Of a stretch of 64,000 nucleotides of DNA, positions 1-3,320 are shown piece by piece (position 1 is the stretch's first letter; the number at the start of each line of letters is the position of its first letter). The position numbers and the translations under genes are program-made. Source of the DNA: Flavobacterium channae (lineage in GTDB: Bacteria > Bacteroidota > Bacteroidia > Flavobacteriales > Flavobacteriaceae); assembly GCF_021172165.1 (NCBI RefSeq), contig NZ_CP089096.1, positions 2,744,468 through 2,808,467 on the forward strand, read 5' to 3'. Under the pieces are notes generated by a model. It worked only from the letters and a program-made list of their open reading frames with translations, had not been told where the DNA came from and searched no databases.

Positions 1-762
1 TTTCAAAACTTTTATTCCTGAATCGATTACTTGGTCAAGAAAATCCAACGTGCACAAATCTTTTGGAGACATCATGTATTCGTTGTCAATCTCAATTTCA
101 AATCCCGATTCTTGATCAATAACCGTGTATTTTTTTCGGCAATTTTGTTTGCAAGCGCCTCTGTTAGCAGAAGAATTATGCGAATGTAAACTCAAATAAC
201 ATTTTCCTGAAACCGCCATACACAAAGCTCCGTGACCAAAGATTTCAATCTCAACTAAATTGCCACTTGGTCCTTTTATTTGCTCTTTTTCAATATCATC
301 GGTGATTTTCTTTACTTGGCGTAAACTCAACTCGCGAGACAGAACAATCGTATCAGCAAACATGGCGTAGAATTTTACCGTTTCTATATTGGTTACATTC
401 AATTGGGTAGAAATATGCACTTCCATTCCCATCGTACGAGCCGTCATAATCACCGCTTGGTCAGATGCAATTACGGCTGTAATTCCTGCTTCTTTAGCTT
501 TAGTCAAAAGTGTTTTTACAATCGATAAATCATGATCGTAAATAATGGTATTTAAAGTTAGATAGGTTCTAACGTTTTTTTCGTTGCAACGACGCGCAAT
601 TTCTGGCAAATCATCTAAAACGAAATTCACAGTTGCACGAGCTCGCATGTTTAATTGTTCTACACCAAAATAAATTGAGTCGCAACCATTATCTAAAGCT
701 GCTTGCATGGATTCGAAATTTCCTGCAGGCGCCATTAATTCTATTCTTCCAGAAGTTGTCAT
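1..762 (-). CDS. Peptidase U32 family protein, TrhP-like tRNA hydroxylation enzyme (3' end outside the window)
   Basis: The first 254 residues are present; the rest runs off the left edge. The N-terminus (ELMAPAGNFESM, then DSIYFGVEQLNMRAR) is the TIM-barrel start of the U32 family. Four cysteines at about 181, 188, 204 and 208 (C-x6-C-x15-C-x3-C, in GALC, GKC, GAC and QNC) match the iron-sulfur ligands of the TrhP/RlhA/UbiU type. Family knowledge: TrhP makes 5-hydroxyuridine at tRNA position 34 in a prephenate-dependent way, and RlhA hydroxylates 23S rRNA. The start codon overlaps the stop of the upstream trhO gene in a TAATG arrangement, so the two are translationally coupled. Because trhO performs the same tRNA modification by another route, TrhP is the most likely identity. 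Whether this protein has its own C-terminal barrel cannot be seen here. Confidence 0.85.
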   Translation of the reverse strand, partial: MTTSGRIELMAPAGNFESMQAALDNGCDSIYFGVEQLNMRARATVNFVLDDLPEIARRCNEKNVRTYLTLNTIIYDHDLSIVKTLLTKAKEAGITAVIASDQAVIMTARTMGMEVHISTQLNVTNIETVKFYAMFADTIVLSRELSLRQVKKITDDIEKEQIKGPSGNLVEIEIFGHGALCMAVSGKCYLSLHSHNSSANRGACKQNCRKKYTVIDQESGFEIEIDNEYMMSPKDLCTLDFLDQVIDSGIKVLK

Positions 763-2120
763 TAGCTGATAATTTTAAATAATTTATCGGATAATCTTAC
801 TCTAAAAGGCACTTCAAAAGTTACTTTATCGCCAACTTTAGCTGATGAATTTTCAGTTCCGTTTACGAACATTTTTTCTAGAATCAATTCTTGGTTTCCA
901 GTTGTTGGTCCCGAAATTAGAATGCTGTCACCAAGATTTAACTCTTGATTTTCTATAACGAAAAGTCCTACTTGTGCTTTCACATAATAGTGTTCGGCTT
1001 TACCAAGCAATACTTTTTTTACTTTTATTTTTTGACGAATGTCTTTGGTTTTTTGGGCTACAGCCAAAGGTTTGTCAGAAAGTTCTCCTGAATGTTTGAA
1101 TTTCAAATTTTCTGATTTTCCTTTTCGGAAAACCTTATTTCCTACTTGTTTTCCTCTACGAAGTTTTACTTGTTCGGCTAATGGTAAATGCGTGATTTCT
1201 AAACATTCGGTAGAACAACAATTTTCCATAGCTGCTTTACATTCGTCACATTGAATGAATAATAAATGACAACCATCGTTCAAACAATTCGTGTGATTGT
1301 CGCAAGGTTTTCCACATTGGTGACATTGCGAAACGATATCGTCGGTAATTCTTTCCCCTAATCTGTGGTCGAAAACGAAGTTCTTTCCAATGAATTTACT
1401 TTCCAAACCTTCTTCTTTGATTTGTTTGGCGTAATTAATAATTCCGCCTTCAAGTTGGAAAACATTTTTAAAACCTTGGTGTTTGAAATACGCCGATGCT
1501 TTCTCGCAACGAATTCCTCCGGTGCAATACATCACCAAGTTTTTATCTTCTTTGAAATCTTTTAATTGTTCGTTAATAATTGGTAACGATTCACGAAAAG
1601 TTTCTACATCTGGAGTAATTGCACCTTTAAAATGACCGATTTCACTTTCGTAATGATTTCTAAAATCTACTACAATCGTGTTTGGATCTTCTAAAATTTG
1701 ATTGAATTCTTTCGCTTTTAAATGCACTCCAATATTGGTTACATCAAACGTTTCGTCGTTCAAACCATCGGCTACAATTTTATCACGAACTTTTACCGTT
1801 AATTTTAAAAACGAATGGTCGTCGTGTTCTACAGCAACATTCAATCGAATGCCACGCATAAAATCGTAAGCTTCTAAAGTTTCTCTAAAAGCTTCAAAAT
1901 TTTCGGCTGGAACCGACATTTGAGCATTGATACCTTCTTTGGCTACATACGTTCGACCAAGAGCATCGAGTTTGTTCCATTCGATAAATAAATCGTCGCG
2001 AAATTTTTTGGGATCTTCAATTTTGGCATACGCATAGAAAGATAATGTAAGACGTTGTTTTCCGGCTTCATCAATTAATTGAGCTCTTTCTTCTGCGCTT
2101 AAAGTGTTATACAGTTGCAT
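762..2120 (-). CDS. trhO: tRNA uridine(34) hydroxylase TrhO (rhodanese family) with an extra C-terminal domain
   Basis: TrhO (YceA) hydroxylates U34 of tRNAs to 5-hydroxyuridine using oxygen. Visible are the N-terminal acylphosphatase-like domain (about 25-110), the rhodanese domain (about 140-235) with the loop CTGGIRC (Cys199, Cys205), and a cysteine-rich probable zinc segment (about 266-306, CHQCGKPC to CCSTEC). At 452 residues it is about 100 longer than the E. coli protein. The added tail (about 365-452) has the pattern of the beta-barrel that ends many U32 peptidases: G at the start, LGDSILISGP, LEKMFVNG, KVGDKVTFEVP, DKLFKI. It overlaps the downstream U32 gene by one base (TAATG). A good TTG-N18-TACCTTTG promoter lies about 90 bp upstream. 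The TrhO call is firm; the tail assignment is by eye. Confidence 0.93.
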   Translation of the reverse strand: MQLYNTLSAEERAQLIDEAGKQRLTLSFYAYAKIEDPKKFRDDLFIEWNKLDALGRTYVAKEGINAQMSVPAENFEAFRETLEAYDFMRGIRLNVAVEHDDHSFLKLTVKVRDKIVADGLNDETFDVTNIGVHLKAKEFNQILEDPNTIVVDFRNHYESEIGHFKGAITPDVETFRESLPIINEQLKDFKEDKNLVMYCTGGIRCEKASAYFKHQGFKNVFQLEGGIINYAKQIKEEGLESKFIGKNFVFDHRLGERITDDIVSQCHQCGKPCDNHTNCLNDGCHLLFIQCDECKAAMENCCSTECLEITHLPLAEQVKLRRGKQVGNKVFRKGKSENLKFKHSGELSDKPLAVAQKTKDIRQKIKVKKVLLGKAEHYYVKAQVGLFVIENQELNLGDSILISGPTTGNQELILEKMFVNGTENSSAKVGDKVTFEVPFRVRLSDKLFKIIS

Positions 2121-2269: not shown

Positions 2270-2299
2270 TTGTATCGAATAAAAAAAGATGTATTTTTA
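2270..2299 (+). promoter_or_regulatory. Promoter of recA
   Basis: TTG (2270-2272), 19 bp, then TATTTTTA (2292-2299, one mismatch to TAnnTTTG). The predicted start point near 2303 lies downstream of the first possible ATG at 2289, which rules that codon out and supports initiation at 2316. No LexA-type box was recognised. Confidence 0.6.
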
Positions 2300-2315
2300 C
2301 GAAAAATATTTTATT

Positions 2316-3320
2316 ATGAGCTCAGATAAAGACGCAAAATTAAAAGCCTTACAACTAACATTAGACAAACTTGACAAAACGTACGGAAAAGGAACCGTAA
2401 TGAAATTAGGTGATAGCGCTGTTGAAGAAGTAGAAGCTATTCCGTCAGGTTCATTAGGTGTTGATTTGGCTCTTGGAGTAAATGGATATCCAAGAGGAAG
2501 AATCATAGAAATCTACGGACCAGAATCGTCAGGTAAAACCACGTTAACATTACACGCCATTGCAGAAGCTCAAAAAGCGGGTGGAATTGCAGCATTTATT
2601 GATGCCGAGCACGCATTTGACCGTTTTTATGCTGAGAAATTAGGGGTTGATATTGACAATTTAATTATTTCGCAACCAGACAATGGAGAACAAGCATTAG
2701 AAATTGCTGAAAGTTTAATTCGTTCTGGAGCTGTAGATGTTGTGGTAATTGACTCGGTTGCTGCCTTAACTCCAAAAAGTGAAATCGAAGGCGACATGGG
2801 TGATTCTAAAATGGGATTACACGCTCGTTTGATGTCTCAAGCATTAAGAAAATTAACAGGAACTATTCATAAAACAAACTGTACTGTTTTCTTCATTAAC
2901 CAATTACGTGATAAAATTGGTGTTATGTTTGGAAGCCCTGAAACAACAACGGGTGGAAACGCGTTGAAGTTTTATGCTTCAGTTCGTATTGATATTCGTA
3001 AATCGACACAAATTAAAGATGGTGATAATGTTTTAGGAAACAGAACTAAAGTAAAGGTTGTAAAAAACAAAGTAGCACCACCATTTAGAACTGCTGAATT
3101 TGACATCATGTATGGAGAAGGGATTTCTAAAGTAGGTGAAGTTTTAGACTTGGCTGTAGAATTTGAAATTATCAAAAAAAGCGGTTCATGGTTTAGTTAT
3201 GGTGAAACAAAATTAGGACAAGGTCGTGATGCGGTTAAAGCCTTAATAAAAGACAATCCAGAATTAATGGACGAATTGGAACAAAAAATCAAAGAAACCA
3301 TTAAAGAAAATAACGTTTAG
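2316..3320 (+). CDS. recA: Recombinase RecA
   Basis: RecA coats single-stranded DNA, drives homologous strand exchange and stimulates LexA-type self-cleavage. The 334-residue protein has Walker [10 protein letters not shown] at 68-76, the Walker B strand [12 protein letters not shown], the DNA-binding loop 1 region around [17 protein letters not shown] and loop 2 [21 protein letters not shown]. Length is usual for the family, with a short acidic/lysine-rich tail. The frame is open from 2289 but that ATG overlaps the promoter, so MSSDKDAK at 2316 is chosen. The gene is transcribed alone: divergent from trhO and closed by a strong terminator immediately after the stop. Confidence 0.98.

What the first reader, a model, noticed from the sequence alone, without database searches (positions are those of the whole stretch)
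1..2120. TrhO fused to a U32-type C-terminal barrel and coupled to a U32 (TrhP-like) gene
Two enzymes known to make the same tRNA modification (5-hydroxyuridine at position 34) by different routes overlap by one base here. Moreover, TrhO has about 88 extra C-terminal residues (365-452) whose pattern (LGDSILISGP, LEKMFVNG, KVGDKVTFEVP, DKLFKI) is that of the beta-barrel normally ending U32 proteins. This suggests an accessory tRNA- or partner-binding domain moved onto TrhO, and an integrated oxygen-dependent plus prephenate-dependent hydroxylation system.
Basis: partly seen in the sequence, partly recalled or inferred. Interest (0 to 1): 0.72.

Follow-up and report, generated by a model that had tools for sequence, protein, structure and literature searches.

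The report
tRNA hydroxylase with borrowed partner domain
A bacterial enzyme that modifies the decoding base of tRNA carries an extra C-terminal domain that was copied, apparently once, from the unrelated enzyme encoded next to it, probably as an RNA-gripping module.

Summary
TrhO (762..2120, minus strand, 452 aa) has an ordinary core (residues 1-342), a linker and an 86-residue barrel (367-452). The barrel is 50% identical, without gaps, to the C-terminus of the neighbouring U32 protein. That gene overlaps trhO by one base, encodes 413 aa with its own barrel, and is followed by a ferredoxin gene. Trees fit one fusion: 33 fused TrhOs form one clade and their barrels nest among own-genus U32 barrels. 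Named fused loci are Flavobacterium, Myroides and Weeksellaceae, with horizontal transfer between families.

The U32 protein groups with neither TrhP nor RlhA. Of 33 fused-TrhO genomes, 17 lack this U32 and 11 lack any U32 match. The barrel is equally constrained with or without an adjacent U32 gene. An obligate two-pathway complex is not supported. Most likely the barrel is a portable RNA (tRNA) contact module, perhaps EF-Tu-domain-2-like (weak evidence), in a genome where only U34 tRNAs read the G-ending codons of six NYN boxes.

The parts
762..2120 (-). trhO, fused form, 452 aa (stop codon 762-764)
   Evidence: NCBIfam TrhO NF001133 263.5 bits over cut-off 170; 52.8% identical to E. coli TrhO over 335 aa
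1095..2120 (-). canonical TrhO core, residues 1-342 (UPF0176_N, rhodanese with CTGGIRC loop, Rhodanese_C)
   Evidence: Pfam; alignment with E. coli TrhO; most unfused same-family TrhOs end near residue 343
1023..1094 (-). linker, residues 343-366, net charge +3, variable
765..1022 (-). captured U32-type C-terminal barrel, residues 367-452
   Evidence: 50% identity to the neighbouring U32 C-terminus; barrel tree; PF16325 in 12 of 22 TrhO tails at E<=1, best 5.7e-6
1..762 (-). 5' part (residues 1-254) of the 413-aa U32 gene; overlaps trhO by one base (TAATG); remainder, own barrel and the following ferredoxin gene lie outside the window (L003 7291-8762)
199..246 (-). U32 motif residues E173-C188, same spacing as the essential E162/C170/C177 of E. 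coli TrhP
   Evidence: alignment; E173, C181 and C188 invariant in the 23 U32 rows; essentiality from PMC6599085 (Discussion part 1)
2289..3320 (+). recA (named from the sequence, no family search), divergent upstream neighbour

Best explanation
Shown: a normal TrhO (by homology an oxygen-dependent tRNA U34 hydroxylase) gained, on the present trees once, a copy of the C-terminal barrel of the U32 protein encoded next to it. An operon-like trhO-U32-ferredoxin order already exists in relatives with unfused TrhO, so the barrel probably arrived by local duplication plus deletion of a U32 body (inferred). The fused gene is in all sampled Flavobacterium-genus genomes, in Myroides, and crossed between this group and Weeksellaceae. 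U32 and ferredoxin genes are missing from many fused lineages while the barrel stayed and is still constrained. Inferred: the barrel is an RNA-contacting module, perhaps of the EF-Tu-domain-2 kind. TrhP carries one and the quinone-pathway U32 proteins UbiU and UbiV do not. On TrhO it would give a second tRNA contact, raising affinity or widening the set of tRNAs hydroxylated at U34. That would be useful in a genome where only U34 tRNAs read the G-ending codons of the six NYN four-codon boxes.
For: Homology of the two tails. One fused clade in the TrhO core tree, 100/99; 33 tails one clade, 93/86, inside a 99/87 group with the 14 own-genus U32 barrels. Unfused trhO beside U32 in 4 of 15 other same-family genomes with unfused TrhO and 2 of 7 named unfused loci. 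Median barrel dN/dS 0.106 with and 0.102 without an adjacent U32 gene, core 0.039. 26 positions are >=90% conserved in both TrhO tails and 21 Flavobacteriales U32 barrels; none that is >=90% in tails has a different residue at >=70% in U32, so the ligand is probably shared. EF-Tu domain 2 is hit at E<=1 by 7 of 16 barrels, best 9.8e-6, and 7 of 22 TrhO tails, best 2.9e-3, and is the top PDB match of the tail-only profile (E 0.078). E. coli TrhP has a PF16325 barrel; UbiU and UbiV end before that region. 45 tRNA matches, 29 anticodons, no C34 tRNA for Ala, Val, Pro, Ser, Thr or Leu-CUN.
Against: No structure, binding or tRNA mass-spectrometry data. Every EF-Tu or PF16325 match of a Bacteroidota barrel whose score was printed is below Pfam's cut-off; the window's own tail has neither; 12 of 22 tails also hit G5, another model (best 6.3e-4), and scattered ones hit ribosomal S17, S4e and GreA models. 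Tail profile against TrhP-type barrels is weak (hhalign probability 7.5%, E 0.0047; five shuffled controls 0.035-0.19). The corresponding region of RlhA, also an RNA hydroxylase, gave no profile match to tails, U32 barrels or TrhP barrels, so the 'RNA-acting U32' pattern rests on TrhP alone. Barrel net charge is only about +1. B. subtilis YrrN takes part in tRNA hydroxylation without the C-terminal motif (PMC6599085, passage).
Confidence: 0.55

Rival explanations
1. The barrel docks TrhO to the neighbouring U32 protein (and its ferredoxin), making one oxygen- plus prephenate-dependent hydroxylation complex.
For: trhO and this U32 gene lie on the same strand within 1.7 kb in 20 of 20 order-level genomes that hold both; one-base overlap here.
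Against: 17 of 33 fused-TrhO genomes lack the U32, 11 lack any PF01136 match, and the ferredoxin was not found in any of those 17. Barrel dN/dS is the same with and without an adjacent U32 gene. Linkage also occurs with unfused trhO. Of 21 named fused loci with U32 downstream, 5 overlap and 16 are 4-981 bases apart. The U32 is not shown to act on tRNA.
Confidence: 0.12
2. The barrel is a protein-protein, oligomerisation or stability module with no RNA contact.
For: Small near-neutral barrel; G5 matches in 12 of 22 tails; no direct RNA evidence.
Against: It retains the conserved positions of the U32 barrel and shows sub-threshold likeness to EF-Tu domain 2; TrhO acts on tRNA and TrhP, which has such a barrel, serves the same modification.
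Confidence: 0.25
3. The tail is a neutral leftover of a gene-fusion accident.
For: It evolves faster than the core (median dN/dS 0.105 against 0.039).
Against: dN/dS near 0.1 (215 non-independent pairs) is purifying selection; kept in 24 of 24 own-genus and 8 of 8 f2 genomes.
Confidence: 0.04
4. The barrel recruits the operon ferredoxin to supply electrons for the oxygen-dependent reaction.
For: The ferredoxin gene is found in 10 of 10 tested genomes with this U32 protein.
Against: Not found in 28 of 28 tested genomes without it, including 17 with fused TrhO.
Confidence: 0.04

Closest known systems
TrhO (YceA), oxygen-dependent tRNA uridine(34) hydroxylase
   Same: Core is a full TrhO: over the NCBIfam cut-off, 52.8% identical to E. 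coli TrhO including the CTGGIRC rhodanese loop; solved relative 9j5o aligns over residues 17-307.
   Different: Has a linker and a barrel that E. coli TrhO (350 aa) and 15 of 16 TrhOs of other genera in the family sample lack.
Peptidase_U32_C (PF16325) barrel of TrhP-type U32 proteins; solved as 4he5/4he6
   Same: Same position after the U32 domain; 12 of 22 TrhO tails and 4 of 16 barrels match at E<=1; a profile including four TrhP-type rows finds 4he5 at 4.3e-12 (partly by construction).
   Different: The window's tail does not match in Pfam; profiles without TrhP-type rows do not list 4he5. Sits on a rhodanese-type enzyme.
TrhP (YegQ), prephenate-dependent tRNA U34 hydroxylase
   Same: Neighbouring U32 protein keeps the E/C/C motif and has a C-terminal barrel.
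   Different: Separate Bacteroidota U32 clade; 195.5 bits against cut-off 534; paired with a ferredoxin in the genomes tested.
RlhA, 23S rRNA C2501 hydroxylase
   Same: U32 enzyme; better E. coli BLAST match of the neighbour than TrhP (33% over 280 aa).
   Different: RlhA has DUF3656; a distinct 623-aa RlhA-like protein lies elsewhere in this genome.
EF-Tu domain 2 (GTP_EFTU_D2)
   Same: Sub-threshold profile likeness of the barrel.
   Different: Not seen for the window's own tail; no GTPase context.

Membership tests
TrhO | Score over the NCBIfam equivalog cut-off | tested here: met
   263.5 bits against 170
TrhO | Rhodanese active-site loop and UPF0176_N and Rhodanese_C domains | tested here: met
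TrhO | Oxygen-dependent ho5U34 formation | not testable with these tools
   needs enzymology
Peptidase_U32_C barrel | Homology to the C-terminal domain of a U32 protein | tested here: met
   42/84 identical to the neighbour's C-terminus, E 3e-27; tree
Peptidase_U32_C barrel | Window tail over the PF16325 gathering score | tested here: not met
   no hit at E 10; 12 of 22 TrhO tails at E<=1, best 5.7e-6; the 4 with printed scores are below the cut-off
Peptidase_U32_C barrel | Beta-barrel fold | not testable with these tools
   structure prediction switched off
TrhP (neighbouring gene) | NCBIfam TrhP equivalog cut-off | tested here: not met
   195.5 of 534 bits
TrhP (neighbouring gene) | Groups with TrhP in a U32 tree | tested here: not met
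   separate Bacteroidota clade; TrhP, RlhA and UbiU rows on the other side of a 98/96 branch (26 rows, root uncertain, B. subtilis rows not available)
TrhP (neighbouring gene) | Catalytic E and two C residues | tested here: met
   E173, C181, C188 aligned to E162, C170, C177
RlhA (neighbouring gene) | DUF3656 domain after the U32 domain | tested here: not met
   PF01136 only
EF-Tu domain 2 superfamily (barrel) | Significant profile match | tested here: inconclusive
   best 9.8e-6 in a U32 barrel, 26.4 of 30.3 bits; 7 of 22 tails at E<=1, best 2.9e-3; PDB profile E 0.078

The most novel reading that the evidence does not exclude
The U32 C-terminal barrel is a portable wobble-tRNA recognition module. 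Flavobacterium captured it from the operon neighbour and put it on a chemically unrelated hydroxylase. Two non-homologous catalysts for U34 hydroxylation then share one targeting domain, and the fused TrhO can serve all six NYN-box tRNAs alone, so that the U32-ferredoxin pathway became dispensable and was lost repeatedly.
Probability: 0.3. Interest if true: 0.75.

Novelty: new variant of a known kind. Interest (0 to 1): 0.55.

Why it matters
How TrhO and U32 hydroxylases recognise their RNA substrates, and what the U32 C-terminal domain does, is not explained in the passages read here. A natural graft of that domain onto an unrelated enzyme isolates its function: compare TrhO with and without it, in organisms with and without the donor protein. 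It also documents domain capture between adjacent genes, followed by horizontal spread, in organisms whose small tRNA sets put heavy demand on wobble-U decoding. The tight pairing of this U32 subfamily with a small ferredoxin is a further clue to how U32 hydroxylases get electrons or clusters.

Tried and rejected
Neighbour as TrhP ortholog: rejected on the NCBIfam cut-off and the tree. Obligate TrhO-U32 complex: rejected as a general explanation by fused-TrhO genomes without U32. Ferredoxin recruitment: rejected by co-occurrence. Neutral tail: rejected by dN/dS. Compensation, i.e. fusion going with more U32 loss: not supported; this U32 is present in 16 of 33 fused against 4 of 15 unfused same-family TrhO genomes. 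This counts against the last clause of the novel case. More than one fusion: not needed, one change on the tree. Fused TrhO elsewhere in the phylum: none among the class- and phylum-level rows listed (weaker matches were not listed), and in 23 of 23 rechecked genomes the TrhO match stops by residue 312, with the barrel match at another place in 22 of them and not listed in one. Other phyla: not surveyed (one search failed); 59 plasmid records with TrhO matches, none covering 80% of the query, the 15 listed ending at residue 336 or before. cmo5U as end product: unlikely, CmoA and CmoB models scored 20 and 26 bits, below cut-offs of 193 and 275; a 213-aa PF01596 methyltransferase is only a TrmR candidate, and residues 14-213 of it gave no TrmR-named model. 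Nesting of the f2 TrhOs inside the genus: the AU test does not reject a monophyletic genus (p 0.117) but rejects a monophyletic family without them (p 0.0026). Literature: no mention of the fusion seen in the listings, nor in the passages and section read of PMC6599085, PMC7408541, PMC9723704 and PMC8144621; the library holds open-licence papers only. After the report check the confidence of the best explanation was lowered from 0.58 to 0.55, that of the protein-module rival raised from 0.22 to 0.25 and the novel case lowered from 0.35 to 0.30, because the RNA-acting-U32 argument rests on TrhP alone and U32 loss is not commoner in fused genomes.
Full report
What is there. The window's first 2,120 bases hold, on the minus strand, trhO (762..2120, 452 aa) and the start of a U32 gene. 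The junction is TAATG, a one-base overlap. The window is the last 64 kb of a 2.81 Mb single-contig genome, so the full neighbour could be read: 413 aa, followed, again with a TAATG overlap, by a 76-aa ferredoxin gene, then ricT, gldH and a probable penicillin-binding-protein gene (that last label and recA's are from the sequence, without a family search); recA is divergent upstream. The closest named locus is Flavobacterium odoriferum (98% TrhO identity).

The tail. Residues 1-342 are an ordinary TrhO. Unfused same-family relatives stop near residue 343, a few with a short unrelated end. Residues 368-451 align without gaps to residues 328-411 of the neighbouring U32 protein at 50% identity (E 3e-27; z 21 against 1000 shuffles). 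The named Pfam check fails for the window's own tail and for the neighbour's barrel (no PF16325 hit at E 10). Of 22 TrhO tails, 12 hit PF16325 at E<=1 (best 5.7e-6), 7 EF-Tu domain 2 and 12 G5; of 10 of these rescanned, 4 hit PF16325 (16.7-22.7 bits, cut-off 28.2) and 3 EF-Tu domain 2 (16.8-18.1, cut-off 30.3). Of 14 U32 barrels plus 2 TrhO tails, 7 of 16 hit EF-Tu domain 2 (best 9.8e-6, 26.4 bits) and 4 of 16 PF16325. A profile of TrhO tails alone has EF-Tu domain 2 as its top PDB match, E 0.078, effectively one protein family. A profile that includes four TrhP-type barrels finds the solved U32 C-terminal domain 4he5 at 4.3e-12, partly by construction; without them 4he5 is not listed. TrhO tails against TrhP-type barrels by hhalign: probability 7.5%, E 0.0047, five column-shuffled controls 0.035-0.19; RlhA's region matched nothing. 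I conclude a U32_C-type barrel, with an EF-Tu-domain-2-like fold as a plausible but unproven reading.

Distribution. In 395 phylum genomes, fused TrhO (match to residue 450 or beyond) appears in 24 of 24 own-genus genomes (window's included), 8 of 8 of one other family of the order (f2), and 1 of 17 genomes of other genera of the family (G367); 15 of the other 16 have unfused TrhO and one (G296) shows no TrhO-level match. Named loci: 73 of the 80 kept are fused, from Flavobacterium, Chryseobacterium, Halpernia, Epilithonimonas, Frigoriflavimonas and Myroides, plus unnamed or mislabelled bins; these are the best-scoring 80 of 591 and so biased to fused forms, and some are the same contigs as sampled handles. 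Chryseobacterium belongs to Weeksellaceae and Myroides to Flavobacteriaceae; that f2 is Weeksellaceae is inferred from matching identity levels. The barrel alone is found in 176 of 395 genomes; in the loci that were read outside the fused group it sits in U32 proteins. In 23 genomes rechecked, the TrhO match ends by residue 312 in 23 of 23.

History. Tree of TrhO cores (69 rows): the 33 fused form one clade, 100/99, one change. Tree of barrels (33 TrhO tails, 53 U32): the tails form one clade, 93/86 (95% of 200 bootstrap trees), inside a 99/87 group with all 14 own-genus U32 barrels. The barrel therefore came from the U32 lineage of the neighbour, most simply once. recA identities to the window are 88-93% (genus), 82-85% (other genera of the family), 78-81% (f2). 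TrhO identities are 79-83% for f2 but 65-74% for unfused members of the family, and 69-74% for six own-genus members (alignment lengths differ between fused and unfused). An AU test rejects the family without f2 as one TrhO clade (p 0.0026) but does not reject the genus as one (p 0.117). A horizontal transfer between f2 and the Flavobacterium/Myroides group is supported; its direction and exact point are not. Unfused trhO next to U32 and ferredoxin occurs in G107, G118 and G198 (trhO first) and G134 (U32 first) and in Tenacibaculum and Polaribacter loci, so linkage does not need the fusion. In the order-level sample all 20 genomes with both genes keep them on one strand within 1.7 kb; in four class-level genomes where both were read (G126, G150, G292, G383) they lie at least 8.7 kb apart.

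Does the barrel serve the U32 partner? In 49 order-level genomes the 413-aa U32 is present in 16 of 33 fused-TrhO genomes; of the 17 without, 6 keep only a roughly 620-640-aa RlhA-like protein and 11 have no PF01136 match. Among 73 named fused loci 21 have it downstream; 7 of the other 52 have under 2.5 kb of contig left and cannot tell. Of the 21, 5 overlap trhO and 16 lie 4-981 bases away. Median barrel dN/dS: 0.105 overall (215 pairs), 0.106 with an adjacent U32 gene (48 pairs), 0.102 without (96), 0.072 in Weeksellaceae (36); core 0.033-0.039 (adjacency, not genome-wide presence, was the criterion, and pairs are not independent). 26 barrel positions are at least 90% conserved in both TrhO tails and Flavobacteriales U32 barrels and none clearly distinguishes TrhO. 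The domain is kept for something it does on its own, probably with the same ligand as before.

What is the neighbour? Its motif residues match the essential E162, C170 and C177 of E. coli TrhP, but it scores 195.5 of 534 bits for TrhP, matches E. coli RlhA better than TrhP (149 against 122 bits), and in a 26-row U32 tree it belongs to a Bacteroidota clade separated by a 98/96 branch from UbiU, RlhA and a TrhP group that includes Clostridia proteins. The root and UbiV's place are unsure and B. subtilis YrrN/YrrO were not available. It should be called a U32 hydroxylase-like protein of unknown substrate. Its ferredoxin is found in 10 of 10 tested genomes with this U32 and 0 of 28 without; in named fused loci it stands beside U32 in 21 of 21, and one locus without U32 (L162, F. 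circumlabens) has a partial ferredoxin-like match.

Why it might pay. The genome has 45 tRNA matches; ARAGORN on loci covering all of them gives 29 anticodons, with UGC only for Ala, UAC only for Val, UGG only for Pro, and U34 plus G34 for Ser, Thr and Leu-CUN. No C34 tRNA reads a G-ending codon of these six boxes, which are those whose tRNAs carry ho5U-derived wobble bases in E. coli; there, loss of trhP and trhO is harmful when tRNA genes for G-ending codons are also removed (PMC6599085, Discussion part 1 of 2 and passages). CmoA and CmoB are below cut-off, so the product is probably ho5U or a methylated form. Whether relatives without the fusion have larger tRNA sets was not tested.

Mechanism proposed. 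The rhodanese core makes ho5U34 with O2, as shown for E. coli TrhO (PMC6599085). The barrel, on a 24-residue linker, adds a tRNA contact. Support: TrhP has the PF16325 barrel, PMC6599085 notes a characteristic C-terminal motif in YrrO and TrhP, and UbiU and UbiV, annotated as ubiquinone biosynthesis proteins, end before it. Against: RlhA's region shows no profile match, YrrN acts without the motif, charge is modest, and no binding data exist.

Novelty. No description of the fusion was found in the searches listed in Tried and rejected. By occurrence counts PMC6599085 is the one paper in the library that treats both enzymes at length; it reports TrhO in the FCB group, and the passages and section read mention no tail. 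I rate it a new variant of TrhO with a well-supported origin and an inferred function.

Noticed in passing
L003 7291-7521 (genome 2743758-2743988), outside the window: A 76-aa 4Fe-4S ferredoxin gene overlaps the end of the U32 gene and co-occurs with it: 10 of 10 tested genomes with this U32, 0 of 28 without. A candidate electron donor or cluster supplier for this U32 subfamily.
   Followed up: partly
L103 (G296): A same-family genome that kept U32 and ferredoxin at the ricT-gldH locus but shows no TrhO-level match, the reverse of the common loss.
   Followed up: no
own genome, tRNA loci L230-L272: Small tRNA set: 29 anticodons; C34 tRNAs only with CAU, CCA (Trp) and CAA (Leu) anticodons.
   Followed up: partly
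L212: Dysgonomonas hofstadii carries an unfused TrhO 71% identical to the window's, unexpectedly close for a genus that I recall as Bacteroidales; possible horizontal transfer.
   Followed up: no
L170: A contig titled Rhizobium sp. MAG carries a Flavobacterium-like trhO-ricT-gldH block; probably a binning or naming error.
   Followed up: no
L162 6859-7065: A partial ferredoxin-like match (60% over residues 7-53) downstream of a fused trhO without U32 in F. circumlabens; perhaps a remnant.
   Followed up: no
literature, F. psychrophilum THC0290_0031: A YceA-type gene of F. psychrophilum is listed among SM6 (ECF-sigma-type) promoters, which are induced under low nutrients (PMC9723704, passages read).
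   Followed up: no
L004 1782-3653 (genome 2345781-2347652): A second U32 gene, 623 aa with DUF3656, 42.6% identical to E. coli RlhA over 618 columns; no such match in several relatives.
   Followed up: partly
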